Shown here: positions 562 through 14,177 of the stretch, one piece after another
Layout: every line of letters starts with the position of its first letter
Position numbering within the stretch: the stretch's first letter is position 1
IMG/VR virus record: IMGVR_UViG_3300025873_000059
Span: 1 to 21,270 of that record
Reading direction: 5' to 3' (one strand)
Origin: a virus
Length of the DNA: 21,270 bases
Position numbers and translations under genes: made by a program
Notes under the pieces: model-generated
Databases searched by the model: none
What the model was told of the DNA's origin: nothing
The model's input: the letters and a program-made list of their open reading frames with translations, nothing else

Positions 562-891
562 TTATTTATAATAGGACAAGATACAGTACACCTTGTCTTT
601 TTTAAGTACTATATATGGGTATACTTTTTGAGCAATTTTATAGGCTTGCCTATATTTTACTGTCCATTTCCATGATTGAAGATGATGTGGTTGTCTTTTC
701 TTGCATCTATAAACACTTCCCACTTGAAAGAGGTCATGTAAAAATTTAATAACTTTATAAGAAGTCATTTCCACTTGAATCAGTGGCACTCCTGGGCGTT
801 TATCTTTTCGAGGAGGAATAGCAATATATCCTTCTCCATCTAAGACTCCAGCGGCGTAGGCGTAAGCTGTATCTTTTTTAGATTGCCCCAT
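562..891 (-). CDS. LAGLIDADG-type homing endonuclease, single-motif, free-standing
   Basis: The protein (109 aa) carries one LAGLIDADG-family motif near the N-terminus (YAAGVLDGEGYIAI, residues 12-25), with the acidic catalytic position and the following strand (GYIAI). Proteins of this size act as homodimers and cut one long DNA site, spreading their own gene. A basic stretch (KKRQPHHLQSWKWTVKYRQ) fits the DNA-contacting sheet. The start at 891 has an AGGAG four bases upstream that lies inside the polymerase coding sequence, and the gene overlaps the polymerase 3' end by 52 bases. It is not inside an intron or intein, because the polymerase frame runs intact to its own stop. The family call is firm; activity and target are unknown. 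Confidence 0.82.
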   Translation of the reverse strand: MGQSKKDTAYAYAAGVLDGEGYIAIPPRKDKRPGVPLIQVEMTSYKVIKFLHDLFQVGSVYRCKKRQPHHLQSWKWTVKYRQAYKIAQKVYPYIVLKKDKVYCILSYYK

Positions 892-2750
892 GAGACTCCT
901 ATTTTTGGTTCAACTTTTGATGGAATTTTTAATTCTATACACGTTTCCATTATTTCTTTAATTAAACGTACAATATTTTCTCTGGTGTCGATAGAGAGAG
1001 ATAAATTTAATTCATCATGGACTTGAATATGAGGGATAATATTTTCTTCTGCGAGTGCTATCATCGCTTTTTTAGTTTGATCAGCTGCGCTTCCTTGAAT
1101 AATGCGGTTAAGAGCTTTGTAAGTAAAGGCGCGTCGTAATCCTTGGCGTTGATTAATAACATATTCCTGATGGGCTTCTTTGTAAGGGAGTGGCTTGTGA
1201 AGATCAAAGGTAGCTGGTTGCCATAAATCAAATCGACATCGACGGCCTTCTAAAGTTCTCAGAAATCCACTACTATTAGCCCATTGCATAGCTTCCTCTG
1301 TTAAAGCTTTTAAAAAAGGAACGGTGGCATGATATTGTTTAAATAAAGAATTAGTCTCTTCTTTATTTAATCCTAATTCATTTCCCAATTTTGTTTTACC
1401 CATTCCATAAGATAATCCTAGATTAATCGTCTTTGCTGTTTTTCGATCAATGCCTGCCATCTCTGCGACGGCTTGATGAAAATCTGGATCTTGAGTACGA
1501 TAGAGTTCAACTAATTTATCTGTCCCTCTTAATCCTTTTCCATTATTTAAGCTTGAAGCAAAATGCAAGAGAATCCGTGGCTCTTGTTGAGAATAATCGA
1601 AACTTCCCCATTCACATCCATCATCAGGAAGAAAAAGATTTCTAATCATTGGTCCAAGTTCCGGATGTCGCGCAGGAATTTGTTGAAGATTAGGATGTTG
1701 CATGGAAAGACGACCTGAAACTGTTCCTCCTGTTTCTGTTTTTAATTGATTAATATCCGCATGAATACGACCTTTATGTTCATATTTTATAATAGAATTA
1801 ATAAATGTTGTTCGGGCTTTATTAATTTCTCGTGCTTCTGTAATCATGCGTGGAAGGGAGTGAGGATGATTGGCTAAAAATGCTTTAGTGAATTGGGGTT
1901 GTTTATTAATCTCCGTCCTCCCATATATAATATCTTTGGCATCAAAAGCCTTCGCAACACTCGTGGCAGCCCAAATGTCCACCATGACTCCTGTCTCCTG
2001 GAAAATTTTATCCAATAGTGCCTTTTCTTTTTTCTCCAAAATTTTCTTAAGTTTTTCTGCACGTTCAACACTGACTTTTACTCCTTTCCATTTCATATCA
2101 ATAAGGGTTGGTAATAGTTTAGTTTCAAGATTAAAAATATTTGTTAGTTCTTGCTTGACAATTTCTTTTTTAAAGTAGTTCCATAATTTTAATGTTAACT
2201 CTGCATCTTTTTCTGCATAGGGCCCTACTACCATGGGCGGTAGCTTATGCATCTCTGCTTTCGGGTCCACACCATGTTCTAATCCTGTTGAATATAATTC
2301 ATTTTCTTTTTTCTTGTCTCCAAGATAGTCTTTAGATAAATCATTTAAACTATAATTCTTCCCCCGTGATGTTCTATTTTCGTCAATAAGTGGAGCTGCA
2401 ACCATTGTATCAATGAGCCTTCCTTGAATACTTAATCCCCATTGTCGAAGCCATCCTACATCGTAAGAAGCATTATGAAAAATTTTATCGCAAGGGGAAT
2501 CTAGTATTTTTTTTAATGAGATTTTAAAAAATTTTTCTTCAAAGTTTCCTCCTCCTTCGTGAGCAACAGGGAAATAACCTTTCCATCCATCTACGGCTAG
2601 TGCTACCCCAACTACTCTTCCTTCTTTCCTAGCCCATCCTGGGCCTTTATCTTTAAGACCTGGATCATAGGTTTCCAAATCAATAGCTATTTCTTTGGCG
2701 TCTGATAAATCCGGTATACGTTCTGGAGGTAGCCACTCAATATTATTCAT
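840..2750 (-). CDS. Family A DNA polymerase with 3'-5' exonuclease domain
   Basis: This replicative phage polymerase (636 aa) is T7/Pol I type and lacks a 5'-3' exonuclease domain. The proofreading domain shows Exo I (DLET, 24-27), Exo II (HNASYD, 92-97) and Exo III (YAEKD, 178-182). The polymerase domain shows motif A (DYSQQEPR, 385-392), motif B (R436, K440, Y448 in RKTAKTINLGLSYG) and motif C (HDE, 578-580), so all catalytic acidic residues are present. The position matching E. coli Phe762 is Leu444. Motif A has Gln389 and Pro391 where Ile and Leu are usual. The start at 2750 follows GAGATAAAAA and overlaps the end of the 53-residue gene upstream. The C-terminus beyond SWGNLKKI (QLTPTPLES) is shared DNA with the homing endonuclease. 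Confidence 0.97.
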   Translation of the reverse strand: MNNIEWLPPERIPDLSDAKEIAIDLETYDPGLKDKGPGWARKEGRVVGVALAVDGWKGYFPVAHEGGGNFEEKFFKISLKKILDSPCDKIFHNASYDVGWLRQWGLSIQGRLIDTMVAAPLIDENRTSRGKNYSLNDLSKDYLGDKKKENELYSTGLEHGVDPKAEMHKLPPMVVGPYAEKDAELTLKLWNYFKKEIVKQELTNIFNLETKLLPTLIDMKWKGVKVSVERAEKLKKILEKKEKALLDKIFQETGVMVDIWAATSVAKAFDAKDIIYGRTEINKQPQFTKAFLANHPHSLPRMITEAREINKARTTFINSIIKYEHKGRIHADINQLKTETGGTVSGRLSMQHPNLQQIPARHPELGPMIRNLFLPDDGCEWGSFDYSQQEPRILLHFASSLNNGKGLRGTDKLVELYRTQDPDFHQAVAEMAGIDRKTAKTINLGLSYGMGKTKLGNELGLNKEETNSLFKQYHATVPFLKALTEEAMQWANSSGFLRTLEGRRCRFDLWQPATFDLHKPLPYKEAHQEYVINQRQGLRRAFTYKALNRIIQGSAADQTKKAMIALAEENIIPHIQVHDELNLSLSIDTRENIVRLIKEIMETCIELKIPSKVEPKIGVSWGNLKKIQLTPTPLES

Positions 2751-2904
2751 TTTTTATCTCTGGAAGTTTATTCATTTTATCTAATTCCAATTTAACAAAA
2801 TCTTTTTTTAACCACCTTTTCAAAAGTAACTCTGCTTTTTCCCTTTGATTATCTAATGTTTTTTGTAATTTAATAACTAATCTGTGTTCTTTTTTGGTGC
2901 TCAT
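2743..2904 (-). CDS. Hypothetical basic helical protein (53 aa)
   Basis: This short gene fills the gap between the SF1 helicase and the polymerase. It starts at ATG 2904, inside the helicase 3' end (35-base overlap), and ends at 2743-2745, eight bases inside the polymerase start. GGAGAAATAAGAT precedes the ATG and gives a ribosome binding site. The product is lysine/leucine-rich with a predicted amphipathic helix (KLQKTLDNQREKAELLLKRW). I recognise no family. The exact fit between two overlapping neighbours, with a site for ribosomes, is the evidence that it is real. A polymerase or helicase accessory role is only a guess from position. Confidence 0.62.
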   Translation of the reverse strand: MSTKKEHRLVIKLQKTLDNQREKAELLLKRWLKKDFVKLELDKMNKLPEIKNE

Positions 2905-4438
2905 ATCTTATTTCTCCAAATTCTATATCTGTTTCAGGGGCAACCACATGTAATTCTTTCTTTGCACGTGTCATCCCTGTATAAAAAACTTTTCTTGTTT
3001 CTTCTGAATCTTTATAATATCCATCCATACCCTTTCTTGACATATCAGTTAATAGCATAACATTATCAGCTTCGCCACCTTTTGCTCCATGAATGGTAGA
3101 GACAATAATCCGTGGGGGTTTTGTTAGATCTTCATTACGTAATAAAAGAGATTTAATCATGCGAACATCTCGTTCCTTAATTCTATCTAGAGCCGTGAGC
3201 CACGGTGCATGTGGCGCTAATAGTAAACCATGTTGACTTTTTAATCTTTCAAAATTAAATTTTTCATGGTCAAGAGCTCCTTCCATCTTTTTTGCACCCC
3301 ATTTTAGTCCGGTCTTAGAACTAATATAACTATAAATAAGTTTTACTTCCTCTAAAGAAATTTCTTTTCCTTCCCTTAATTTTTCCCAGGTATACATTGC
3401 ATTAATCGCATCACTAGAAACAGAGGGGAATTCGTTCGTGCCTTTACGTCTTATAAAATATAGTCCATGCTGTTTCATATCCGTACTAATTTTATCCAAA
3501 TGATATCCAGTGGATGCTAATAAAAGCCATTGTCCTTTGTCAAAAAGGGACAGATTAACTTGGGCAGGAAAATCGATAAGACCTTTCTCTTGTCTGGGTT
3601 TCCAAACTTTAGGCTGTCTTTTTTTATTGCGGTTAATCAAAGCTGTGCAATAAGAGTGAATATCAATAGGGACGCGGTGCGATTGATGCAACACACTTTT
3701 TCTGGTAGAAGGCCTATTAGCCCGGATAAGAAGTTCCTGGACATCCCCTCCGGCCCAGCCAAAAATAGCCTGGTCATCGTCCCCTGCAATATATATTTTT
3801 TCCGAACGTTCTATTAATTTATCAACAAGTTTCCATTGAAGCTTGCTTAAATCCTGTGCTTCATCAATAATTAAAACTTTGAAAGAAGGAATTTTTTCTT
3901 CATCCTCGATTAAATTATAAAGCATATCTGTAAAATCATACAGGTCTCGTTTGGCTTTAAATTCCTTATATCCTCTATCTATTTTTTCAAGTTTTTTCCA
4001 TCCCCCTTCCAAATGTCCATACTCTTTGAATTCTTGATATAATGAAGTGTATTTAATTCTATACTTGTCAATGAGGGAAAGATAAGGATCTTCATAGCTG
4101 GGATAGCCTATTTCCCAGGAGACATTATCAGGATTTTTAATATTATAGCCAATGAGATTAGAGAATTCAGTGTAATCATCATCCTGCATGACAGCGGTGC
4201 GATCAATATGAAGGGAACGCAATGCTAAACTGTGTAAGGTTCGGAAGTATTGAAATTCTTTTCGGGGCTTGTCAAACAATCGAACGGCCCCATCTATCGC
4301 TACCCGTGTAGCTTTTTTGGTAAAAGAAAAATAACCAATGTCCACGGGGCGCGTGCCATGAGCCAACTCCTCTTCGACAATGGAAAGAAGTGTCGTAGTT
4401 TTACCTGTCCCTGGAGGACCAAAAATAACTTCCATCAT
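2870..4438 (-). CDS. UvrD/Rep-type superfamily 1 DNA helicase
   Basis: This ATP-dependent DNA translocase/helicase (522 aa) has all main SF1A motifs in order: Walker A GPPGTGKT (7-14), motif Ia region FTKKAT (39-44), motif II DEAQD (192-196), motif III GDDDQAIFGWAGG (219-231), motif IV HQSHRVP (251-257), motif V STIHGAKGGEADNV (447-460) and motif VI FYTGMTRAKK (485-494). It is shorter than cellular UvrD or PcrA (about 650-750 aa) because the 1B/2B insertions are reduced, as in phage Dda-like enzymes. The start at 4438 overlaps the nuclease stop as ATGA, so the two are translationally coupled. A role in replication or recombination with the adjacent nuclease is inferred from context. Confidence 0.93.
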   Translation of the reverse strand: MMEVIFGPPGTGKTTTLLSIVEEELAHGTRPVDIGYFSFTKKATRVAIDGAVRLFDKPRKEFQYFRTLHSLALRSLHIDRTAVMQDDDYTEFSNLIGYNIKNPDNVSWEIGYPSYEDPYLSLIDKYRIKYTSLYQEFKEYGHLEGGWKKLEKIDRGYKEFKAKRDLYDFTDMLYNLIEDEEKIPSFKVLIIDEAQDLSKLQWKLVDKLIERSEKIYIAGDDDQAIFGWAGGDVQELLIRANRPSTRKSVLHQSHRVPIDIHSYCTALINRNKKRQPKVWKPRQEKGLIDFPAQVNLSLFDKGQWLLLASTGYHLDKISTDMKQHGLYFIRRKGTNEFPSVSSDAINAMYTWEKLREGKEISLEEVKLIYSYISSKTGLKWGAKKMEGALDHEKFNFERLKSQHGLLLAPHAPWLTALDRIKERDVRMIKSLLLRNEDLTKPPRIIVSTIHGAKGGEADNVMLLTDMSRKGMDGYYKDSEETRKVFYTGMTRAKKELHVVAPETDIEFGEIRYEHQKRTQISY

Positions 4439-5157
4439 TTTGAATTCTCATTTTCCCATAACCCTTCTTTGATCATGTACTCTTTCAAACGTTGATTCCA
4501 TTTATCTTTATAATCTTTAAACATATACTCCTGGAGATGAAACTGTTGGAAAAATCCTTCACGGCTACACATTAAAATGTAGCCTTGGCTAATATTTGTC
4601 CCAAACATATCATTATGCGCAAGAGCGTAAGCTGTGAGCTGAAGATAATAATCCTCAATCCATTCTTCTTTTTTAGGTTTGTTGGTTTGTTTAAAATCAA
4701 TGATGGCTGCTTTACCGTCAAAAAGACCTACAACATCTGTTGTTCCTGCATATAAAGGAGTTTTAGTAGGACTATATCCTGTTAAATTTACTTCGCATCC
4801 CCATACTTCATCTAAATTATAAAGAGCTCTTCCAATGATAACATTTGCCATTTTACGTGCGCGACGGCCGATAGCAGTATCATCATAATATTTCATATCG
4901 CCCTTATTCAAAATATATTTCTCGAGGTATTTATGAAGAGCCGTTCCTACAGCTGCGGCATCATCTCTTATCTTTTCTGCTTGTTGTTTCCCTACACGCT
5001 CTGCCCATTTTTTTAAATTTTCAGTTTTTTCTGCGGGTTGAGTTACCTTAAGAATGGTAGTAACGGAAGGAACTTTTATTTTTCCAACTTCATATAAACG
5101 TTTAAGACCATCCAACCGTTTAAATTTTTTATAATTATATTTCTTTTTTAATTTCAT
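4435..5157 (-). CDS. PD-(D/E)XK superfamily nuclease (RecB/Cas4-like exonuclease)
   Basis: The 240-residue protein has the core signature of this nuclease family: GTALH (71-75), an acidic residue in WGCEV (E122), the metal-binding aspartate in GTTDVVG (D141), the catalytic D-x-K in IIDFKQ (D154, K156) and the downstream QLTAYA helix motif (173-178). Such enzymes cut DNA ends for recombination or host DNA breakdown. I see no four-cysteine iron-sulfur cluster as in true Cas4. AAGGA lies six bases before the ATG at 5157, and the 3' end overlaps the SF1 helicase start. Side-by-side helicase and nuclease genes resemble a split AddAB/RecB arrangement, but a physical complex is inference. Confidence 0.88.
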   Translation of the reverse strand: MKLKKKYNYKKFKRLDGLKRLYEVGKIKVPSVTTILKVTQPAEKTENLKKWAERVGKQQAEKIRDDAAAVGTALHKYLEKYILNKGDMKYYDDTAIGRRARKMANVIIGRALYNLDEVWGCEVNLTGYSPTKTPLYAGTTDVVGLFDGKAAIIDFKQTNKPKKEEWIEDYYLQLTAYALAHNDMFGTNISQGYILMCSREGFFQQFHLQEYMFKDYKDKWNQRLKEYMIKEGLWENENSK

Positions 5158-5169
5158 TGTATATCCTTT

Positions 5170-5364
5170 CTATGAAATTTTTATTGTAGTTGTAGGCATT
5201 GCGTCTTTATAGTCGCTTGTAGTTTTACATTTATTACAAATTCTATTTCCTACACCCCAACTATCAAATATTTTTCCACAAGGGAGACATTTTCTTGGGG
5301 TCCAGATGATATTTTTAGAATCTTTAAAATTATAATTAGTGGATTTCACCTTTATATAAGCCAT
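5170..5364 (-). CDS. Small zinc-finger-like protein (two CxxC pairs)
   Basis: The 64-residue protein has CLPC (Cys26, Cys29) and CNKC (Cys43, Cys46) separated by 13 residues containing DSWGVGNRI, a four-cysteine zinc-binding layout. Short phage proteins of the form RKCLxCGKxFxSxGxGNRxCxxC are familiar to me mainly from phages and prophages of Alphaproteobacteria; that recollection is from knowledge, not a search. The start at 5364 is set by a strong AGGAGAGG that lies inside the end of the upstream SNF2 gene, with a 13-base overlap. It probably binds nucleic acid or protein; the exact role is unknown. Confidence 0.75.
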   Translation of the reverse strand: MAYIKVKSTNYNFKDSKNIIWTPRKCLPCGKIFDSWGVGNRICNKCKTTSDYKDAMPTTTIKIS

Positions 5365-6800
5365 TTTTTTACATCCTCTCCTAATACTTGTGTAGCTAAA
5401 TTAATTTTATTTCTTAGACTTTTAACTATTTTTTCATCTATTGTTCCTTTGGCAATAATATCAATATAAGTTACTTTCTCTGTTTGACTAATCCTATGGG
5501 CGCGATCCTCGGATTGCATTCTTATTTCCAAGTCATAACTATTACTATAGTAAATAACTGTGTGACTTGCCGTTAAAGTTAAACCATATCCTCCTGTTTT
5601 AGGATTAGCAACCAGGAAGCGTAAATCAGAGTCCTTGTCTTGAAATCTATTAACTATTTCTTGTCGTATTCTTGGATCTGTGTCTCCATAAAATGTAGCT
5701 ACGGAATCTGTCCCATAAATTTTTTCTAAATGCTTTGCGATTTCTCGAATATCGTAACGATAAACAGCCCAAATAATAATTTTACGATCATTGGTTTCTT
5801 CTAAAACTGCCAAAAGTTCTGCAATCCTGTTATTTTTTATGGACTTAACTTCCTGCGCACTGTCTGTTTTTACATGCCCACACGTAATTTGATGAAGTCG
5901 CACTAATTGAGCGAGGGCACTTACAGCAGACATTGTTTCTCCTTTTTGTAAGGTGGCCACACCATATCTTTTCATTTCCATATAAGCTTGTTTTTGTTCA
6001 GGACTTAATTCAATATATCGTTTTAAATAAATTTTTTCCGGCAAGTCTAAGCACTCCTCTTTCAATACTCGGGTTGAAAAGGATGAGAGTTTATGATTTA
6101 ACTCATCAAGCCGTACATATTTTATAACTTGATCAAAAGAATGGCGTCCTGGTAAATTAATTTTTCTTGTAATAGTATAACGTGATTTAAAAGCATAATA
6201 AGATCCGAAATCCAATAAATAAGGATCAAGGAAATAGCACTGGGCATAAAGATCCAATGGAGTTTTAGTAACAGGCATTCCTGTTAAGATTCGTCGGTAC
6301 TTAGCAAGATCTCTCATTTTAATAATGTTTCGTGTACGACTTGCTTTTGGATTTTTTATAGTAGTAGATTCATCAATCACTAGTAAAGATCTATGGCCTA
6401 ATAAAAATTTGTAAGCTATTTCTGCTCCTCGTTTGGTGCTCAAGGCTTCTACATTCATAATAAAAATAACAAGATGTTCATTTAAAACAAATAAAGATTT
6501 AAGAATTTCTTGTTGTTTTTTAGTTTTCTCTGGAGACCATACAATGGAAGAATATTCTACATGTTCTGGCATATGAACTGGAATTTCTAAACTATCCCAG
6601 TTTGCTGTAATGCTTTTAGGAGCAATAATAAGAACCCCATCAATTTTTCCTCGGTCATATAAAATAGCCATATTATCTATGATAATCTTGGATTTTCCCG
6701 TCCCCATATCCGCAAAAATGGCATAGTTTTCCTTGTTCCATGCCTCGCGTAAAATATCTAATTGATGCCCATAAGGCTTCGTTTTAAACTTATATTTCAT
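5352..6800 (-). CDS. SNF2-family superfamily 2 helicase/translocase
   Basis: The 482-residue protein contains both RecA-like lobes. Lobe 1 has Walker A DMGTGKS (31-37), a DExx box written DEST (143-146) and the SNF2-typical TGMPVTKTPLDLYAQ (173-187). Lobe 2 has FYGDTD (370-375), NPKTGGYGLTLT (399-410) and motif VI QSEDRAHRISQ (429-439). This matches the compact bacterial/phage SNF2 group that moves along double-stranded DNA rather than acting as a hexameric fork helicase. AAGGAAG before ATG 6800 supports the start. It is the first gene of the minus-strand replication operon, just downstream of the divergent promoter region. Likely roles are replication restart, branch migration or protein displacement; which one is unknown. 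Confidence 0.92.
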   Translation of the reverse strand: MKYKFKTKPYGHQLDILREAWNKENYAIFADMGTGKSKIIIDNMAILYDRGKIDGVLIIAPKSITANWDSLEIPVHMPEHVEYSSIVWSPEKTKKQQEILKSLFVLNEHLVIFIMNVEALSTKRGAEIAYKFLLGHRSLLVIDESTTIKNPKASRTRNIIKMRDLAKYRRILTGMPVTKTPLDLYAQCYFLDPYLLDFGSYYAFKSRYTITRKINLPGRHSFDQVIKYVRLDELNHKLSSFSTRVLKEECLDLPEKIYLKRYIELSPEQKQAYMEMKRYGVATLQKGETMSAVSALAQLVRLHQITCGHVKTDSAQEVKSIKNNRIAELLAVLEETNDRKIIIWAVYRYDIREIAKHLEKIYGTDSVATFYGDTDPRIRQEIVNRFQDKDSDLRFLVANPKTGGYGLTLTASHTVIYYSNSYDLEIRMQSEDRAHRISQTEKVTYIDIIAKGTIDEKIVKSLRNKINLATQVLGEDVKKWLI

Positions 6801-6825
6801 GATTCTTCCTTAATTTCTACTTATC

Positions 6826-6854
6826 CATATAAAATATTGCCAAAAGGATTGCAA
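6826..6854 (-). promoter_or_regulatory. Candidate promoter of the minus-strand replication operon
   Basis: On the minus strand TTGCAA (6849-6854) is followed 17 bases later by TATATG (6826-6831), giving an expected start of transcription about 20 bases before the SNF2 helicase ATG at 6800. It is interleaved with an oppositely directed candidate promoter. The match is good but not tested. Confidence 0.5.
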
Positions 6855-6865
6855 TAGATTAATAA
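6837..6865 (+). promoter_or_regulatory. Candidate promoter of the plus-strand SSB/primase operon
   Basis: TTGCCA (6837-6842, five of six to the consensus -35) is followed by exactly 17 bases and TAATAA (6860-6865, a weaker -10). Transcription would begin near 6872, ahead of the first plus-strand ATG at 6894. The short region also holds TTGC...GCAA inverted repeats that could be an operator. Confidence 0.45.
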
Positions 6866-6893
6866 GGAAAAATCTATTAGAAAGAATAGAAAT

Positions 6894-7211
6894 ATGGCAG
6901 TATATGTAGTTCAAGAAGTTGCAGGTCGTAATATTTTAAGTGCTCAGGAATATGGTCAATTAAAATTATTATTGCCTGAAGGATCTCAAGTTGTCTTAAG
7001 TTCTGGCCCTACGGTTAGAAAACTCAAGACAAAATTAAAAGATTTTTGTGATGACGATTATCTTTTATTAATGGGGGACCCTGCTGCTATTGGAATTGCA
7101 TGTTCGATTGCAGCTGATATTAACCGTGGTCGATATAAATGCTTGAAATGGGATAAGATTGAGGCTACATATTATCCTATAGAAATAGACCTATATAATA
7201 GGGAGGATTAG
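6894..7211 (+). CDS. Conserved-looking phage protein of unknown function (105 aa)
   Basis: This is the first gene of the plus-strand island. The protein starts MAVYVVQEVAGRNILSAQEYG and contains LSSGPTVRKLKTKLKDFCDDDYLLLMGDPAAIGIA and a tyrosine-rich C-terminus (YYPIEIDLY). The GDPAAIG segment recalls small phage proteins next to SSB and primase genes that I have seen but cannot name. There is no membrane segment or known catalytic motif. Only a weak AGAA precedes the start, consistent with a leader of about 20 bases. Two bases separate its stop from the next ATG, so the genes form one operon. A role in replication is suggested by position only. Confidence 0.75.
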   Translation: MAVYVVQEVAGRNILSAQEYGQLKLLLPEGSQVVLSSGPTVRKLKTKLKDFCDDDYLLLMGDPAAIGIACSIAADINRGRYKCLKWDKIEATYYPIEIDLYNRED

Positions 7212-7213
7212 AA

Positions 7214-7771
7214 ATGAAGAGCTTAATACAAGAAATGGAACAAGAGGTTGTTCAAAAAATTGGATCTATAGGAGATACAGTCTTATCTACTCTAGGAACT
7301 AAATGTGCAGAACTCTTGGACATACGAAAACAATTAGCAGATCTGGATCAACAAAAGAAACAGTTAAGTGAAAAGGAATTTAAACTTGAACAAGAAGAAA
7401 TTCCTGCAGTGATGGAAGAAAATAATTTGACTTCTTTAAAATTAAAGGATGGTCAAAATATAGAAATTACTGAAACTTATCATGCTTCTATTCTTGTTGC
7501 CAATAGAGAGTCTTGCTATAAATGGTTAAAAGATAATGGACTTGATGATATAATTAAAAATCAAGTCTCTGTTTCTTTTGGTCGTGGCGAAGGAGAACAT
7601 GCCACGGACTTAAGACAGCAGTTAGAAGGACAAGGTTTGGCGGTGGATCATGAACAAAATATTCATCCTCAAACTTTAAAAGCGTTCGTTGGGGAGCGTA
7701 TCCGTCAAGGTGAAAAACTTCCTGATGAATTTGGCGTATTCATACGCAAAAAATTGAAAATACGACAATAG
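7214..7771 (+). CDS. Phage protein with N-terminal coiled coil, function unknown (185 aa)
   Basis: A coiled-coil region (about residues 30-65, LLDIRKQLADLDQQKKQLSEKEFKLEQEEIP) is followed by a compact domain with KLKDGQNIEITETYHASI and CYKWLKDNGLDDIIK. The C-terminal motif HPQTLKAFVGERIRQGEKLPDEFGVFIRKKLKI resembles the end of many unnamed phage replication-region proteins. GGGAGG lies nine bases before the ATG, overlapping the end of the upstream gene, so the pair is coupled. It precedes the putative SSB. The coiled coil implies oligomerisation. I do not assign a biochemical activity. Confidence 0.78.
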   Translation: MKSLIQEMEQEVVQKIGSIGDTVLSTLGTKCAELLDIRKQLADLDQQKKQLSEKEFKLEQEEIPAVMEENNLTSLKLKDGQNIEITETYHASILVANRESCYKWLKDNGLDDIIKNQVSVSFGRGEGEHATDLRQQLEGQGLAVDHEQNIHPQTLKAFVGERIRQGEKLPDEFGVFIRKKLKIRQ

Positions 7772-7798
7772 ACAACCGAAAACCGTAAGGAGGCAATT

Positions 7799-8596
7799 AT
7801 GGTAGTCAAAAAAAGAAAAGCCTCCAAAGCGCCAGTGAAGACGCAACAAAATCTTCCTGCTGCTCTTGGAGCAAGTGACTTCGAGTCAATGGCGAAAGCT
7901 GGACTTGAACATGTCACTCACGATGACCTAGCAACCCCTCGCATTAAAGTTCTTCAAAAAATGAGTCCCGATTTAGACTCATTGGACAATGCGAAACCAG
8001 GCATGTTTTTAGAAACTGTCAGCAATAGATTGTTTGATGGTAGTAAAGGCATGTTGGTTATTCCTGTTGCTTATCAAAGACAATATACTGAATGGCAAGA
8101 TAGAGGCCAAGGGAGCGGAGCTCCTGTGGCTGTTTATGATGCTAAGAGTGATATCTTGAGTAAAACAACTCGGGATGATCAACGCAAAGATAGATTAGAG
8201 AATGGTAACTACGTAGAGACCGCCGCTAATCACTTTGTTCTTATTGTTGAGGATGAAAAAACGGGCATAGGTCAACCGGCTGTTATTACTTTGAAGTCTA
8301 CTCAATTGAAAAAGAGTAGAAAATGGAATTCAATGATGTTGAATTTAAAAATTCAAGGTTCTAATGGACCCTTTACTCCACCGTCTTATAGCCATCTTTA
8401 TCGTATCAGTACGGTTAAAGAGGGTAATGACTTTGGAGAGTGGTTCGGTATAAATGTTGAAAAGGAAAAAATTCTAGAAAATAGAGGCCTTTTCACTACT
8501 GCTAAAGAATTCGCTGATAGCATTACTAAAGGTGAAAAAATAGCAGTGCCCGAAGAACAAGATAATATAATCTCAGAAGGTAAACGAGTCTTTTAA
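7799..8596 (+). CDS. Probable single-stranded DNA-binding-type phage protein
   Basis: The 265-residue protein begins with a basic linker (MVVKKRKASKAPVK), then HDDLATPRIKVLQKMSPDLD, GMFLETVSNRLFDGSKGMLVIPVAYQRQYTEW and a central region ending in KLKSTQLKKSRKWN-type sequence. This order is what I associate with uncharacterised phage proteins encoded next to primases and often suspected to be SSB or recombination-associated. No classical OB-fold SSB or T7 gp2.5 motif can be proven by eye. The tail (PEEQDNIISEGKRVF) is partly acidic and ends in phenylalanine, as SSB and gp2.5 tails do, but basic residues interrupt it. AAGGAGG, six bases before ATG 7799, fixes the start. The operon context with the primase supports a DNA-binding role. 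Confidence 0.6.
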   Translation: MVVKKRKASKAPVKTQQNLPAALGASDFESMAKAGLEHVTHDDLATPRIKVLQKMSPDLDSLDNAKPGMFLETVSNRLFDGSKGMLVIPVAYQRQYTEWQDRGQGSGAPVAVYDAKSDILSKTTRDDQRKDRLENGNYVETAANHFVLIVEDEKTGIGQPAVITLKSTQLKKSRKWNSMMLNLKIQGSNGPFTPPSYSHLYRISTVKEGNDFGEWFGINVEKEKILENRGLFTTAKEFADSITKGEKIAVPEEQDNIISEGKRVF

Positions 8597-8640
8597 GGGA
8601 GGAAGGGGGTGGCTTTTAAAGGCCACCCTCTATTAAAAAA
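8597..8640 (+). promoter_or_regulatory. Shine-Dalgarno plus hairpin in the primase leader
   Basis: GGGAGG (8597-8602) directly after the SSB-like stop is the only good ribosome binding site before the primase ATG at 8641, but it is 38 bases away. Between them a hairpin forms: GGGTGGC (8607-8613) pairs with GCCACCC (8622-8628), with a loop of eight bases. Folding would bring the site to roughly 12-14 bases from the ATG. The hairpin is not followed by a clean T run, so a regulatory or translational role seems more likely than a terminator, though partial termination is possible. Confidence 0.45.
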
Positions 8641-10158
8641 ATGTGGGAGAAATTTAAAGAAATTTTTGAAGGGCTAGATAGAGCCTATGGACAATATAAA
8701 AGTGGAGACCCTAAGTCTAATGGGAAAGTAGGGGGAGAATCTTTTATTGTCAAAAAACCAGTTAATAATATTTTATGGAAAAAGCACTTAGAGGGCGAAG
8801 AACCTTCATTAGGAATTATTCCTATTACTGATGACTCTACATGTAAATGGGGATGTATTGATGTTGATAGTTATCCTTTAGACCATAAAGAAATAATAAA
8901 AAAAATAAAAAATTTACATTTACCTTTGATAGTATGTCGGTCTAAAAGTGGGGGTGCACATTTATTTTTATTTACAAAAGAATGGATTACAGCTTCACTT
9001 ATGCGTGATAAGCTTATGGAATGGGCAGGAAAACTAGGATATGCGAACTGTGAAATCTTTCCTAAGCAAATTGAAATTAGAGCAGATCGGGGCGATACTG
9101 GGAATTTTCTTAATCTTCCTTATCATAGCGGTAATGACACTACTCGCTATGCTTTTAATGTTGATGGCTCGGCTGCCGTGTTGGATCAGTTCTTTTCTTT
9201 ATATGATGAAAACTCAATTGGAAAAAATGATCTCTTATCTTTTAAGATAAAAAAAGAAGTAAAAGAAAGTGATTTTTCTGATGGCCCTCCATGCCTTGAA
9301 ACGTTGGTGGAACAAGGAATTGAAGAAGGAGGACGTGATAATGTTCTTTATCAGTATACTGTTTATGCCAAGAAAAAATGGCCAAAAAAATGGCAAGATA
9401 AGATTTCAGCTTTTAATCATAAATACATAAAATCTCCTTTAGGTCATCAGGAAGTTACTAAAACCGTTAATCAACATGAAAAAACAGATTATCAATATAA
9501 ATGCAAGGATCAACCTATGTGTAGTGTTTGTGTAAGTTCTGCGTGCGTCACACGACAATTTGGTATTGGAGGAGAAGGAGAAAGTAAAGTAAATGATTTA
9601 ACCAAATTACAAAGTGATGGAGAATCTATTTATTTTCTTAACGTGGATGGGCGGCGCGTTTGTTTAACCACGCAAGATCTCACTAATGAAACAAAATTTC
9701 ATGATGCGTGTGTAGAACAAATTAATATTTGGCCCAAGCCTAAAGGAAAAAAAGATTGGCGATTACATGTTCAAGACCTTTTACAACATTGTCAAACGGA
9801 GTATGTATCTAAAGCCATGACACGAGAAGGACGCTTTGAAGCACATCTAGAAGATTTTATTTTGGAACAAGGACAGGCTGATGATCTAGAAGAGATTATG
9901 AGTAATAGAGCCTACCACGATGAAAAAGAAAATGTAATTTATTTTCGTTTGAATGCATTAGAGAATTTTTTACGTCGCCGTAATTTTCATAATTTTAGTA
10001 AGACAAGAATGATTAATGTTATTAAAGAAAAAAGAAAAGGGGGAGATACTCAAAAGAGAATTGGTAAAAAACAGGTGTATGTATGGTGGATTCCTACTAT
10101 CGATAACGATGAAACTCCCTTAAAAATAAAATCAATGGATAAAACACGGGTATTTTGA
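8641..10158 (+). CDS. Archaeo-eukaryotic-type primase (TOTE-conflict-system primase family)
   Basis: The N-terminal half is an AEP primase domain. It has the metal-binding DVD (Asp74, Asp76) in CIDVDSY, the SKSGGAHLFLF motif (101-111, His107) and the third motif region EIFPKQIEIRADRGDTGNFLNLPY (138-161). A helical region (GRDNVLYQYTVYAKKKWP, 231-248) follows, then a cysteine cluster (Cys288, 294, 297, 302) likely to bind zinc. A basic winged-helix-like C-terminus (LENFLRRRNFHNFSKTRMINVIKEKR) comes last. Such enzymes make primers, some with DNA polymerase activity. At 505 aa it lacks any fused helicase. The upstream in-frame TAA at 8617 leaves ATG 8641 as the start. The C-terminus ends KTRVF, like the neighbouring SSB-like protein. 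Confidence 0.88.
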   Translation: MWEKFKEIFEGLDRAYGQYKSGDPKSNGKVGGESFIVKKPVNNILWKKHLEGEEPSLGIIPITDDSTCKWGCIDVDSYPLDHKEIIKKIKNLHLPLIVCRSKSGGAHLFLFTKEWITASLMRDKLMEWAGKLGYANCEIFPKQIEIRADRGDTGNFLNLPYHSGNDTTRYAFNVDGSAAVLDQFFSLYDENSIGKNDLLSFKIKKEVKESDFSDGPPCLETLVEQGIEEGGRDNVLYQYTVYAKKKWPKKWQDKISAFNHKYIKSPLGHQEVTKTVNQHEKTDYQYKCKDQPMCSVCVSSACVTRQFGIGGEGESKVNDLTKLQSDGESIYFLNVDGRRVCLTTQDLTNETKFHDACVEQINIWPKPKGKKDWRLHVQDLLQHCQTEYVSKAMTREGRFEAHLEDFILEQGQADDLEEIMSNRAYHDEKENVIYFRLNALENFLRRRNFHNFSKTRMINVIKEKRKGGDTQKRIGKKQVYVWWIPTIDNDETPLKIKSMDKTRVF

Positions 10159-10308: not shown

Positions 10309-10548
10309 TCATAGACTGTCTTCAGTTGTTCTATTACCTGTTCCTTCATCATATACCTTCTTGATGTTGATCGCGTTTTGTTTCCCCTTGGTCTCCTCTA
10401 TTTCGAATTCTATCTGTTCTCCTTCCTTCAACGTGTCAATACCCGCTTTTTCTAAAGCCGATACGTGCAGAAAGACATCCTTGCCTTCCTGTTCAATAAA
10501 TCCATATCCTTTGGCTGGATTAAACCATTTAATTTTTCCTATAGTCAT
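10309..10548 (-). CDS. Cold shock domain protein (CspA family)
   Basis: This 79-residue single cold-shock domain has [17 protein letters not shown] with RNP1 (K13-G-Y-G-F-I18) and RNP2 VFLHVS (25-30), then the normal [22 protein letters not shown]. The C-terminal extension ([14 protein letters not shown]) is about ten residues longer than CspA. Cold shock proteins bind single-stranded RNA or DNA and melt RNA structure. It is the last gene of the lysis/structural minus operon, with AAAAGGAAACTA before the ATG. A phage copy could support late translation or antitermination; that role is inference. Confidence 0.95.
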
Positions 10549-11735: not shown

Positions 11736-11933
11736 TTACATTAATGCAGAATAAATTGCTTTTAATAATAATCCCAGCACCATGAAACTCACTGTCCACA
11801 CAATCTTGAAGATTACATCAACCTTCGCTGAAAGATGCTGCATATGGTTGTCAAGCTTCTGGTTGATGAGCTTCAACTGCCCCTCAATCTTGATGATGTC
11901 CTCGCGGTTCTGTGTTATTTTTTCTTCAGCCAT
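11736..11933 (-). CDS. XhlA-like holin/haemolysin-type membrane protein
   Basis: The 65-residue protein has an N-terminal heptad-patterned helix (REDIIKIEGQLKLINQKLDNHMQHLSAKV) followed by a C-terminal membrane helix (about 41-63, IFKIVWTVSFMVLGLLLKAIYSAL). This is the layout of the XhlA/haemolysin family found next to phage lysins. It starts at 11933 in a TAATG overlap with the upstream gene and has a strong GGGAGG before it. Position immediately before the lysozyme supports a part in membrane disruption or holin assembly. The family match rests on topology, length and context, not on a signature motif. Confidence 0.75.
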   Translation of the reverse strand: MAEEKITQNREDIIKIEGQLKLINQKLDNHMQHLSAKVDVIFKIVWTVSFMVLGLLLKAIYSALM

Positions 11934-12463
11934 TATTGCCTCCCCATTAACATACCCAAGCCACCATAAAAATATGGATTGAAACCTCCTGAAAAAAGAT
12001 TTCCAAAACTTGGCATCATGGGCTGTTGGTATACATTTTGTTGTTGTTGGTTCGTCCCAAATTTTTCCGTAAGACCCGCAATTCCTTTTTCAAGGGAAGT
12101 AAGCTTATTATTGATATTTTTGAATTGGGAACCAAATCCTCCCATTTGCTGTCCAAAGCCCCCGAGTTGTTCCTCGAAGCCTCCTAGTTGTTCGCCGTAT
12201 CCTCCAAGAGTTTCTCCAAATCCTCCCATTTGTTCCTCGTATCCGCCTAACTGTTCGCCAAATCCTGTTAGTTGTTCACCAAATTGATTAAAACCATGTT
12301 GTGGTGACTGAATTGGGTTTGGAGGCGGTGCCATTGGGTTTCCTGTAAAAGGTTGTCCTCCTCTTGGTCCTCCTAGTAGTCCAAATATACCACCCAAGCC
12401 CGTGCTTTGGGGATTACTGGGAGCAAACTGCAGTCGTTGCTGAAATTGGTCGTTTGGAGTCAT
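11933..12463 (-). CDS. Gly/Gln-rich protein with eight heptad repeats, virion operon
   Basis: The start is set at ATG 12463, where TAATG joins it to the upstream stop and GGAAG sits five bases before. An upstream in-frame ATG at 12490 would add nine residues. The 176-residue protein has a proline-rich N-terminus, then eight uninterrupted seven-residue repeats of the form [FY]-x-E-Q-[LM]-G-G (residues 61-116). A short coiled coil (INNKLTSLEKGIAGLTEKF) and a Gly/Tyr/Met-rich tail follow. An a/d hydrophobic pattern (F and L/M) suggests a fibrous or coiled-coil segment, although the glycines are unusual for that. Position between structural and lysis genes suggests a virion or spike-associated protein. 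No family is recognised. Confidence 0.8.
   Translation of the reverse strand: MTPNDQFQQRLQFAPSNPQSTGLGGIFGLLGGPRGGQPFTGNPMAPPPNPIQSPQHGFNQFGEQLTGFGEQLGGYEEQMGGFGETLGGYGEQLGGFEEQLGGFGQQMGGFGSQFKNINNKLTSLEKGIAGLTEKFGTNQQQQNVYQQPMMPSFGNLFSGGFNPYFYGGLGMLMGRQ
12116..12283 (-). repeat. Eight 21-base coding repeats (heptad protein repeat)
   Basis: Eight tandem 21-base units encode FGEQLTG, FGEQLGG, YEEQMGG, FGETLGG, YGEQLGG, FEEQLGG, FGQQMGG and FGSQFKN without spacers. The units differ in DNA sequence, so they are old or under selection at the protein level rather than a fresh expansion. The antisense strand is rich in CCTCC and CCAAA as a result. Confidence 0.9.
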
Positions 12464-13263
12464 TATTTCTTCCATCCTGAGAGCATCCATTTTAGCATAT
12501 CATCATAGGCCTGAGTGCCTTTTTTAATGGTTCCGCCTAGTAGTTCCAATCCTGACGTTGCTGCCTGTTGTAGCTGGTTTACAGGTTCAAAGTCTTGCAC
12601 TTTTTCCGTCAGCATATTTACATATTTAAGTGGTGTAGCACCTGAGATAAGTCCTTTAATAACATCTCCCCAATTCGTAATGCCTAATTGGTCCTGGGCC
12701 CAATCCTTCTGAAACGGCTCTAGGTTTAGTATGCCTTCATTATCATAATCTTTCAGATTAACTACTCCAGGATTCTCAAACATGGCCAGTCCTTTTAGAT
12801 CTCTTAATAAATTAGGATTATTAGGGTCTGTAAACGTTGTTCCTCCTGTTCGTCGCCAGCCTTCCGGAATTTGGCTAACATCTAGAAGTTGAGCTCCAGT
12901 CGGTTTTTGTCCCGCTCGCAGCATTTCATTGATCATATACTGATACATGTTTCGCTCTTCATCTATATCAGTGGTAACAGCAGGGATGCCTACCAATTGT
13001 TCTTTCCTCGCTCGAATTTCAGGCCAGGTCGGAGTAGCACTAAGTTGATTGATAAGATTAACGGCTGTGCTCTGGTCTTGCATTCCATTTTGGGGGCTTG
13101 TTAGAAATTCTTTTGATGTAAAATCGGATTCTAGAGGAACCGTCTTCCCTAATCTACTTGCAGCTCCGGACACTTTCTCCTTAACATAATCGCTGAAGTC
13201 TCCTTCCTGGGCGCGACGCAGGGTTTCATTATCGATCCTTTGCTGTTTGGTCATTGCCGCCAT
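12463..13263 (-). CDS. Virion-operon protein of unknown function (266 aa)
   Basis: This soluble, mixed-charge protein has no membrane helix. Visible pieces are DNETLRRAQEGDFSDYVKEKV near the start, an IPAVTTDIDEERNMYQYMINEMLRAGQKPTG segment in the middle and an amphipathic C-terminus (YDDMLKWMLSGWKK). GAAGGA before ATG 13263 supports the start; the in-frame ATG at 13254 is an alternative. It lies two bases after the 303-residue gene and shares one base with the repeat protein. The operon context suggests a structural or internal virion protein. I do not recognise the family. Confidence 0.8.
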   Translation of the reverse strand: MAAMTKQQRIDNETLRRAQEGDFSDYVKEKVSGAASRLGKTVPLESDFTSKEFLTSPQNGMQDQSTAVNLINQLSATPTWPEIRARKEQLVGIPAVTTDIDEERNMYQYMINEMLRAGQKPTGAQLLDVSQIPEGWRRTGGTTFTDPNNPNLLRDLKGLAMFENPGVVNLKDYDNEGILNLEPFQKDWAQDQLGITNWGDVIKGLISGATPLKYVNMLTEKVQDFEPVNQLQQAATSGLELLGGTIKKGTQAYDDMLKWMLSGWKK

Positions 13264-13265
13264 AA

Positions 13266-14177
13266 TTATTCCTTCTTAGAAGGTTCCCACGCCTCTGACT
13301 GTTTTCTCAATTCTTCCTTCAGCTTCTGGAGTTTATTCCAGTCCTTACTTCCTCTATCAATCAGCCGTTCCTCTTTGAGAACGCTGTCAAAATCGACACC
13401 TTCATGCAAGAGCATCATGTCCAATTCATCGAGGTAGTAGGGCTTAATTTTATCTAATAAATTATACCATATCTCTTTAGGAAGACTTTTTATAATTCCG
13501 CTTATGTCCTCGTTCATGTCCGTTATGACTTCACGGTAAGGAGTAACTTCTTCTGTGAGTGGATCTTGAAGAAGTTGATTTTTGAAATTTTCATACAATT
13601 CAATGGCGTCCAGCTCTTTTCCCCCTCCTTGCAGAAGCTGTTGCCTTATAAATTCATTCGCATCGTCAGTTTGAAATTTATCAGATTGGTCCGTGGTCAG
13701 CGTTCCAAGAGCAACCTGGTCAGGGCTAAAGGAAGCTTTCTGTCCTATGATCTCCGAGGTTCCCGGCTCAAAAACCTTTCCTTGTTGTTCTTCCATGTGT
13801 TGTTTGGTCTTGAATCCTTGCATCATCCGCATGGTCTCAGCAGCCTCGTTGCCGAACTGCTGTTCGAATTTGGTTGGATTTTCATTGAACATTTCCATTA
13901 AATAATTCATCATCATTTCCTGCTGCTGGTTATCGCGCATGTATTCGATGATGCCTTGATCTTTTAATACTTCTTTTTGGTTGATTAAATTTTCCAGATC
14001 CTCTGGTGTTTGGTGTCGTTTCTGTTCGTTCCAAAACTTATCCCCGTGAGGAGATCCTGAAAAATAACCTTCCGAAGGGCTTATTTTTTCTGTCATTCTC
14101 AACTCTTCTTCGAGTCTCCGCCCTTTGTCCTGGGCTTTCACCATTTCCTTTATTTTTATAACATCTGTAATTGCCAT
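13266..14177 (-). CDS. Met/Gln-rich helical virion-operon protein (303 aa)
   Basis: The protein is almost entirely helical by eye and unusually rich in methionine, glutamine and acidic residues (DNQQQEMMMNYLMEMF, ETMRMMQGFKTKQHMEEQQ). A central ASFSPDQVALGTLTTDQSDKFQTDDANEFIRQQLLQGG segment looks less regular. The C-terminus is charged (LQKLKEELRKQSEAWEPSKKE). AAGGG precedes the start, and one base is shared with the stop of the 1293-residue gene (TAATG). No known domain is seen. A role as an internal core or scaffold-like virion protein is an inference from composition and neighbours. Confidence 0.8.
   Translation of the reverse strand: MAITDVIKIKEMVKAQDKGRRLEEELRMTEKISPSEGYFSGSPHGDKFWNEQKRHQTPEDLENLINQKEVLKDQGIIEYMRDNQQQEMMMNYLMEMFNENPTKFEQQFGNEAAETMRMMQGFKTKQHMEEQQGKVFEPGTSEIIGQKASFSPDQVALGTLTTDQSDKFQTDDANEFIRQQLLQGGGKELDAIELYENFKNQLLQDPLTEEVTPYREVITDMNEDISGIIKSLPKEIWYNLLDKIKPYYLDELDMMLLHEGVDFDSVLKEERLIDRGSKDWNKLQKLKEELRKQSEAWEPSKKE

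What the first reader, a model, noticed from the sequence alone, without database searches (positions are those of the whole stretch)
840..10158. Replication set built on SF1 and SNF2 helicases and an AEP primase, with no DnaB/gp4 helicase seen
Most PolA phages pair the polymerase with a gp4- or DnaB-type hexameric helicase. Here the module has a UvrD-like and an SNF2-like enzyme, a RecB/Cas4-like nuclease and a separate archaeo-eukaryotic primase without a fused helicase. Primase, SF2 helicase and PD-(D/E)XK nuclease are also the parts of TOTE-type conflict systems, so the phage may use a domesticated relative of that set as a replisome.
Basis: partly seen in the sequence, partly recalled or inferred. 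Interest (0 to 1): 0.62.

Follow-up and report, generated by a model that had tools for sequence, protein, structure and literature searches.

The report
Phage replication set lacking ring helicase
This virus of bacteria carries a widespread gene set for copying its DNA that has no ring-shaped unwinding motor and seems to use a different, normally repair-type, motor instead; the set is partly described already, but the motor swap and a shared 'tail tag' on two of its proteins are worth testing.

Summary
Confirmed and extended. The window is a whole 21-kb virus fragment, so absence there proves little; but ten complete phage genomes carry the same set. None of 34 related virus records has a DnaB/gp4 domain; none of 29 scanned has an SF3/VapE domain. 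Five phages with the SNF2-gp33-gp34 genes but no UvrD/AEP all have an SF3/VapE protein: a clean swap. The TOTE idea fails: phage and TOTE primases are separate clades (AU p=0.0008) and their SF2 enzymes do not match. New regularity: gp34 and the primase end in matching C-terminal tips (acidic, usually ...F), as T7 SSB and gp4 do; the match beats shuffling (p=0.0003) and most control pairs show nothing. Best reading: a self-contained replisome whose fork helicase is UvrD-like; biochemistry untested. PolA+UvrD+SNF2 linkage was published in 2018; I found no report of the swap or the shared tip.

The parts
840..2750 (-). PolA-family DNA polymerase with 3'-5' exonuclease, Leu762 type, 636 aa
   Evidence: Pfam DNA_pol_A 2.7e-60, exo 9e-14; phrog_17; motif RKTAKTINLGLSYG; nearest NCBIfam DpoZ_1, 312 bits against a cut-off of 500
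2870..4438 (-). UvrD/PcrA/Rep-like SF1A helicase, 522 aa; proposed fork helicase
   Evidence: Pfam UvrD-helicase 8e-27; phrog_1967; NCBIfam pcrA 9e-23, below cut-off; seen with AEP in nearly all long loci
4435..5157 (-). Cas4/RecB-like PD-(D/E)XK nuclease, 240 aa; found in only 4 of 10 complete relatives
   Evidence: PDDEXK_1 6e-6; phrog_298 exonuclease 4e-47
5170..5364 (-). small zinc-ribbon-like protein, 64 aa, overlapping the SNF2 gene end
   Evidence: phrog_13335 8e-9; no Pfam match at E<=0.01
5352..6800 (-). SNF2-type SF2 translocase, 482 aa
   Evidence: SNF2-rel_dom 5e-20; phrog_62 3e-121; motifs
6801..6893 (.). 93-base divergent intergenic region between the two gene blocks
   Evidence: ORF coordinates; not tested further
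6894..7211 (+). Pam3 gp32-like protein, 105 aa, function unknown
   Evidence: PF23992 2e-28
7214..7771 (+). Pam3 gp33-like protein (DUF7307), 185 aa; the Pam3 homologue is annotated host-nuclease inhibitor
   Evidence: PF23984 2e-31; alignment A3
7799..8596 (+). Pam3 gp34-like protein, 265 aa; candidate single-strand binding protein; C-terminal tip ...EGKRVF
   Evidence: PF23977 1.5e-59; AlphaFold model pLDDT 87; Foldseek viral hits include proteins annotated SSB, E 2.6e-4 and 2.9e-3; PDB only weak (RB69 gp32 core); tips
8641..10158 (+). stand-alone archaeo-eukaryotic primase with PriCT-like helical part and Cys cluster, 505 aa; C-terminal tip ...DKTRVF
   Evidence: Pfam AEP-TOTE 5e-13; phrog_21866 primase 9e-103; fold match to CAPP 2e-10; motifs

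Best explanation
A self-contained phage replisome without a ring helicase. The UvrD-like SF1A enzyme is the fork helicase (inferred; 3'-5' polarity by family, so on the leading-strand template). PolA copies behind it. The stand-alone AEP primes the exposed strand. gp34 coats the single strand. AEP and gp34 carry matching C-terminal docking tips for one common partner (inferred; PolA is the T7 precedent). SNF2 with gp32/gp33 is an accessory block: a duplex translocase that clears or remodels DNA-protein complexes, gp33 perhaps protecting ends. Shown: gene content, linkage, absence of ring helicases in relatives, the UvrD+AEP / SF3 swap, the tip matching. Inferred: every biochemical role at the fork.
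For: Same gene set in ten complete phage genomes whose hosts include SAR11, Acinetobacter, Salmonella, Providencia, Dinoroseobacter and Pseudanabaena. No DnaB_C in these ten or in 24 related virus records (T7 positive control); no DUF5906/SF3 or VapE in the 29 scanned. Five phages with SNF2-gp33-gp34 but no UvrD/AEP (phiVC8, Pam3, Ab18, PB1, Carpasina) all have DUF5906/VapE proteins. The AEP-PriCT part (residues 2-283) is homologous to that of AEP-SF3 fusions (hhalign probability 100, E 3e-61), whose flanks show no UvrD, SNF2 or gp34. Gene order gp32-gp33-gp34-AEP-UvrD is kept in most of 65 long loci; 64 have UvrD and 62 have AEP. C-terminal tips of gp34 and AEP match within genomes (34 clusters: 7.76 vs 3.53, p 0.0002; 15 deep clusters p 0.0003) while gp34-UvrD, gp34-gp33 and gp34-SNF2 do not. 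T7 gp2.5 and gp4 both end in DF, and gp4's acidic tails dock on gp5 (PMC12593628).
Against: No biochemistry. UvrD-type enzymes have low processivity alone (PMC6302109). The window's own genome is incomplete. R5C and Pan1 also carry a Dda-like helicase and a second UvrD, so UvrD may not be the only motor there. Some phages break the tip rule (HTVC023P, R5C, Pan1). gp34 as SSB has no significant match to a solved structure. AEP-PolA tips also show a weak excess (p 0.03-0.06). The swap's comparison group is only five phages, chosen from top hits.
Confidence: 0.58

Rival explanations
1. PolA opens the fork itself by strand displacement, helped by gp34 SSB; UvrD and SNF2 serve recombination, repair or roadblock removal.
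For: Keown 2022 (PMC9069017): 2 of 5 active Leu762 and 5 of 15 Phe762 viral PolAs displaced strands, and SNF2 neighbours were common; the authors propose that the polymerase may replace the helicase. The T7 SSB terminal Phe is reported as essential for strand displacement by T7 polymerase (Ghosh 2009, title only, seen in the reference list of PMC9917605).
Against: UvrD is kept next to AEP in nearly every long locus and is present where the SF3 helicase is missing, which suggests it fills the helicase slot. The reported strong displacement was seen after long incubation of purified polymerase.
Confidence: 0.2
2. The phage borrows host DnaB, loaded through an unrecognised phage loader or through host PriA docking on the SSB-like tip of gp34.
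For: Many gp34 tips resemble the bacterial SSB tip (...DEEIPF...SDIPF); gp32 and gp33 have no known function and could be loaders.
Against: The set is kept across very different hosts (SAR11, Acinetobacter, cyanobacteria); no helicase-loader family matched; the same tip sits on the primase and varies together with gp34's in odd lineages (RVF, IV, PF+1), which a fixed host docking site would not explain.
Confidence: 0.14
3. A domesticated TOTE-type conflict set used as a replisome.
For: Pfam names the primase AEP-TOTE; a stand-alone cold-shock (OB) gene lies at 10309-10548.
Against: Separate clades, AU p 0.00076; TOTE SF2 is ResIII/DEAD and fused to the AEP with no detectable match to the SNF2; no TPR or TBP gene found; the cold-shock protein is a plain CspA-like 79-aa protein.
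Confidence: 0.03
4. A ring helicase exists in the unseen part of this phage genome.
For: The record is a 21-kb fragment.
Against: 0 of 10 complete genomes with the set have one; the nearest longer relative (32 kb, 77% identical primase, L006) has none either.
Confidence: 0.05

Closest known systems
Leu762 'Group II' PolA replication modules with UvrD- and SNF2-like helicases (Nasko et al. 2018, PMC6302109)
   Same: Leu762 PolA next to UvrD and SNF2; there UvrD was always found with SNF2, and the pair was the second most abundant PolA combination in the Chesapeake Bay virome (16.4% of reads on PolA contigs).
   Different: The passages read do not treat the AEP, gp32-34, absence of ring helicases in complete genomes, the SF3 swap or the tips; non-ring helicases were read there as a sign of temperate life.
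HTVC023P-type pelagiphages and other cultured phages (HTVC027P, DSL-LC04, SH-Ab 15497, PMBT28, R5C, Pan1)
   Same: All carry PolA, UvrD, SNF2, gp33, gp34 and AEP.
   Different: In the window lineage UvrD-PolA lies on the opposite strand beside nuclease-SNF2; elsewhere UvrD-PolA usually follows AEP.
AEP-SF3 (DUF5906) primase-helicases of mobile elements and phages (phiVC8, Pam3, Ab18; L252-L262)
   Same: In L252-L262, a homologous AEP-PriCT part; in phiVC8, Pam3 and Ab18, the same SNF2-gp33-gp34 neighbours.
   Different: Helicase fused to the primase; no UvrD of this kind found alongside.
T7 replisome (gp5 PolA, gp4 primase-helicase, gp2.5 SSB)
   Same: Similar division of labour; SSB and primase both end in an acidic tail with terminal Phe.
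   Different: No ring helicase here, primase of a different superfamily, SSB not detectably homologous.
CRISPR-associated PrimPol (CAPP, Marinitoga)
   Same: Nearest solved AEP fold, E 2e-10.
   Different: No CRISPR genes seen here; C-terminal part differs.

Membership tests
TOTE conflict system | Primase groups with TOTE AEPs | tested here: not met
   Separate clades; AU test rejects union, p 0.00076
TOTE conflict system | AEP fused to ResIII/DEAD SF2 helicase, as in the full-length PF22548 members | tested here: not met
   TOTE members are AEP-ResIII fusions; window AEP has no helicase and the SF2 is SNF2
TOTE conflict system | TPR-OB and TBP genes (TOTE = TPR, OB, TBP, Effector; PMC12458937) | tested here: not met
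   No TPR or TBP in window proteins scanned; only a stand-alone cold-shock protein at 10309-10548. The window is a fragment
Leu762 PolA / UvrD / SNF2 replication module | Leu at position 762 of PolA | tested here: met
   RKTAKTINLGLSYG
Leu762 PolA / UvrD / SNF2 replication module | UvrD- and SNF2-like genes beside PolA | tested here: met
Leu762 PolA / UvrD / SNF2 replication module | PolA placed inside Group II of the 2018 tree | not tested
   Reference sequences of that tree were not fetched
Replisome with hexameric helicase (T7 gp4, DnaB, SF3) | DnaB_C, DUF5906/SF3 or VapE domain | tested here: not met
   Absent in the window and in all relatives scanned; positive controls found
Archaeo-eukaryotic primase superfamily | Catalytic DxD and SxH motifs on an AEP fold | tested here: met
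   D74, D76 and H107 invariant in 36 sequences; fold match to CAPP
Single-strand binding protein (gp34) | OB-fold binding ssDNA | tested here: inconclusive
   No PDB hit at E<=0.001; SSB-annotated viral models at E 2.6e-4 and 2.9e-3; RB69 gp32 core weak

The most novel reading that the evidence does not exclude
A widespread class of tailed phages replicates with no ring helicase at all: an SF1A (UvrD-like) motor has replaced the ring helicase at the fork, and a shared, co-evolving C-terminal peptide on primase and SSB, convergent with T7, ties priming and coating to one docking site.
Probability: 0.42. Interest if true: 0.78.

Novelty: new variant of a known kind. Interest (0 to 1): 0.56.

Why it matters
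Replicative helicases of cells and of the best-studied phages are rings (general knowledge). If cultured phages such as PMBT28 or SH-Ab 15497 copy 43-48 kb genomes with an SF1A motor, the assumption that a phage polymerase always comes with a ring helicase fails, and unwinding by a non-ring helicase becomes testable in culturable systems. The shared tip offers a compact way to ask how a replisome without a ring hub organises priming and coating. It also suggests a function for gp34, an unnamed protein matched in 502 phage records.

Tried and rejected
(1) TOTE origin: rejected by tree, AU tests, domain architecture and missing TOTE genes. (2) Window fragment hiding a helicase: made unlikely by complete relatives. 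(3) Defence module: PADLOC hits are generic UvrD/SNF2/Cas4 similarities (GajB, ZorD, Cas4), and the set lies in phage genomes. (4) Stand-alone AEP as a simple loss of an SF3 domain: the C-terminal part 310-505 has no match in the AEP-SF3 fusions, so it is a different C-terminus rather than a deletion scar; one origin of the stand-alone form is not rejected (AU p 0.096). (5) UvrD tips: some end in F in one clade, but they do not match gp34, so UvrD was left out of the tip claim. (6) Literature: the papers defining TOTE (Aravind 2022) and surveying viral replication (Kazlauskas 2016) were not found in the library; both are used only as cited by others.
Full report
What is there. The window is the entire virus record (21,270 bases, a fragment). 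Its first half holds two divergent blocks. On the minus strand: PolA (840-2750), a UvrD-like helicase (2870-4438), a Cas4/RecB-like nuclease (4435-5157), a small zinc-ribbon-like protein (5170-5364) and an SNF2 translocase (5352-6800), overlapping or nearly touching except for a 119-base gap before PolA. On the plus strand: homologues of Pam3 gp32, gp33 and gp34 (6894-8596) and a 505-aa archaeo-eukaryotic primase (8641-10158). Signature motifs of polymerase, both motors, nuclease and primase are intact. PolA has Leu at the E. coli 762 position.

Is the missing ring helicase real? The window alone cannot tell. tblastn found the same set in cultured and complete phages. A profile comparison shows PolA, UvrD, SNF2, gp33, gp34 and AEP in all ten complete genomes taken: DSL-LC04, 023Pt_psg01, HTVC023P, HTVC027P, PMBT28, SH-Ab 15497, Kokobel2, ct3Et533, R5C and Pan1 (two of them lack a detected gp32). 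DnaB_C is absent in these ten and in 24 related IMG/VR records; T7 gp4 is found with the same search. DUF5906 (SF3) and VapE are absent in the 29 of these records that were scanned. Every other Walker-A ORF of 150 aa or more in the ten genomes was listed: terminases, PhoH, a kinase and non-NTPase look-alikes, and in R5C and Pan1 a Dda-like helicase and a clamp-loader-like ATPase; R5C and Pan1 also have a second UvrD. So in eight of ten genomes UvrD and SNF2 are the only candidate DNA motors that I could find besides the terminase.

Which motor took the ring's place? Five phages that carry SNF2-gp33-gp34 but not UvrD/AEP (phiVC8, Pam3, Ab18, PB1, Carpasina) all have a DUF5906 or VapE protein. 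Thus SNF2 and gp33-34 go with either system, while UvrD plus stand-alone AEP appears where the SF3/VapE helicase is missing. The primase tells the same story: residues 2-283 are homologous to the first 297 residues of AEP-SF3 fusions (hhalign probability 100), and loci of those fusions show no UvrD, SNF2 or gp34 in the flanks held. Of 65 loci of 11 kb or more, 64 have UvrD and 62 have AEP, mostly in the order gp32-gp33-gp34-AEP-UvrD; these loci were fetched with AEP or UvrD as bait. This points to UvrD, not SNF2, as the fork helicase. It is an inference from comparative genomics, and the comparison group is small.

TOTE. Pfam calls the primase AEP-TOTE (5e-13). Full-length members of that family, taken from a phylum-wide search, are AEP fused to a ResIII/DEAD helicase. 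In a 54-row tree they form a starred clade, together with chromosomal short AEPs and CAPP on the other side of a starred branch from the phage primases. Uniting phage stand-alone AEPs with TOTE is rejected (p 0.00076), as is uniting the window's 15-row clade with TOTE (p 0.00014). CAPP and HTVC023P are long branches, so their exact places are unsure. The TOTE SF2 part has no phmmer match to the window SNF2. TOTE stands for TPR, OB, TBP, Effector (PMC12458937); no TPR or TBP gene was found. TOTE was sampled from one phylum only.

Primase fold. The model of the 505-aa protein (pLDDT 86, pTM 0.58) matches CRISPR-associated PrimPol (E 2e-10) and, more weakly, S-2L PrimPol. A sequence profile search gives the same first hit.

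gp34 and the shared tip. gp34 is modelled well (pLDDT 87). It has no significant match to a solved structure, but viral models annotated as single-stranded DNA-binding protein appear at E 2.6e-4 and 2.9e-3. Looking at C-termini showed an unexpected rule: 47 of 52 non-redundant AEPs and 33 of 54 gp34 proteins end in Phe, against 21 of 673 ORFs of 150 aa or more in the window and the ten genomes. Odd lineages vary together: window gp34 KRVF and AEP TRVF; HTVC027P QDIV and ENIV; ct3Et533 IPFA and PPFV. Over 34 clusters the last four residues match better within genomes than when shuffled (7.76 against 3.53, p 0.0002). Over 15 deep clusters p is 0.0003, while gp34-UvrD, gp34-gp33 and gp34-SNF2 give p 0.6-0.94 at every clustering level, AEP-UvrD 0.24-0.41 and AEP-PolA 0.03-0.06. 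HTVC023P, R5C and Pan1 do not follow the rule. In Pam3 and Ab18 the primase-helicase ends REPF and KDPF beside gp34 tips DPPF and KAPF. T7 gp2.5 ends DGDF and gp4 ends DTDF; gp4's acidic tails dock on the T7 polymerase (PMC12593628). The test was devised after seeing the pattern, and shuffling does not fully remove relatedness.

Mechanism proposed. UvrD opens the fork, PolA follows, AEP primes gp34-coated single strand, and AEP and gp34 share or compete for one docking site. SNF2 belongs to a family regarded as translocases rather than strand separators (PMC9069017); it would clear or remodel the duplex. Rivals are strand displacement by PolA alone, which has support from purified viral PolAs, and host DnaB recruitment.

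Novelty. Nasko et al. 2018 reported Leu762 Group II PolA with UvrD and SNF2 as the second most abundant combination in their virome. Keown et al. 2022 discussed SNF2-associated strand-displacing PolAs. I found no report of ring-helicase absence tested over complete genomes, of the UvrD+AEP / SF3 swap, or of the shared tip, but the library lacks most subscription papers.

Noticed in passing
window 562-891 (-): Homing-endonuclease-like ORF (phrog_5046; weak LAGLIDADG_1) overlapping the 3' end of the polymerase gene by about 50 bases in another frame.
   Followed up: no
window 10309-10548 (-): CspA-like cold-shock protein next to the primase; stand-alone, not the TPR-fused form linked to TOTE.
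   Followed up: partly
window 840-2750 (-): The best-scoring NCBIfam model of this PolA is DpoZ_1 (aminoadenine-incorporating polymerase), well below its cut-off. PMBT28 and SH-Ab 15497, which carry the same replication set, have an annotated adenylosuccinate synthetase gene near it, as in phages with 2-aminoadenine DNA.
   Followed up: no
window 11933-12490 (-): 185-aa protein with a run of short GGFGEQLGGY-type repeats, no family match.
   Followed up: no
window 14177-18058 (-): 1293-aa protein with no PHROG or Pfam match among late genes; possibly an internal virion protein.
   Followed up: no
window 8641-10158 (+), residues 288-302 of the primase: Three invariant cysteines (YKCKDxP-x4-C-x4-C) follow the PriCT-like part in the phage AEPs aligned; metal binding not tested.
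   Followed up: partly
L083 1361-2926 (HTVC023P primase): HTVC023P primase lacks the conserved stretch after EVFP (KQ...G) found in the others aligned, so its activity is doubtful.
   Followed up: no
L169, L006, L003, L004, L158 versus other loci: In the window lineage the UvrD-PolA pair lies on the opposite strand beside the nuclease-SNF2 genes; elsewhere it usually follows the primase.
   Followed up: partly
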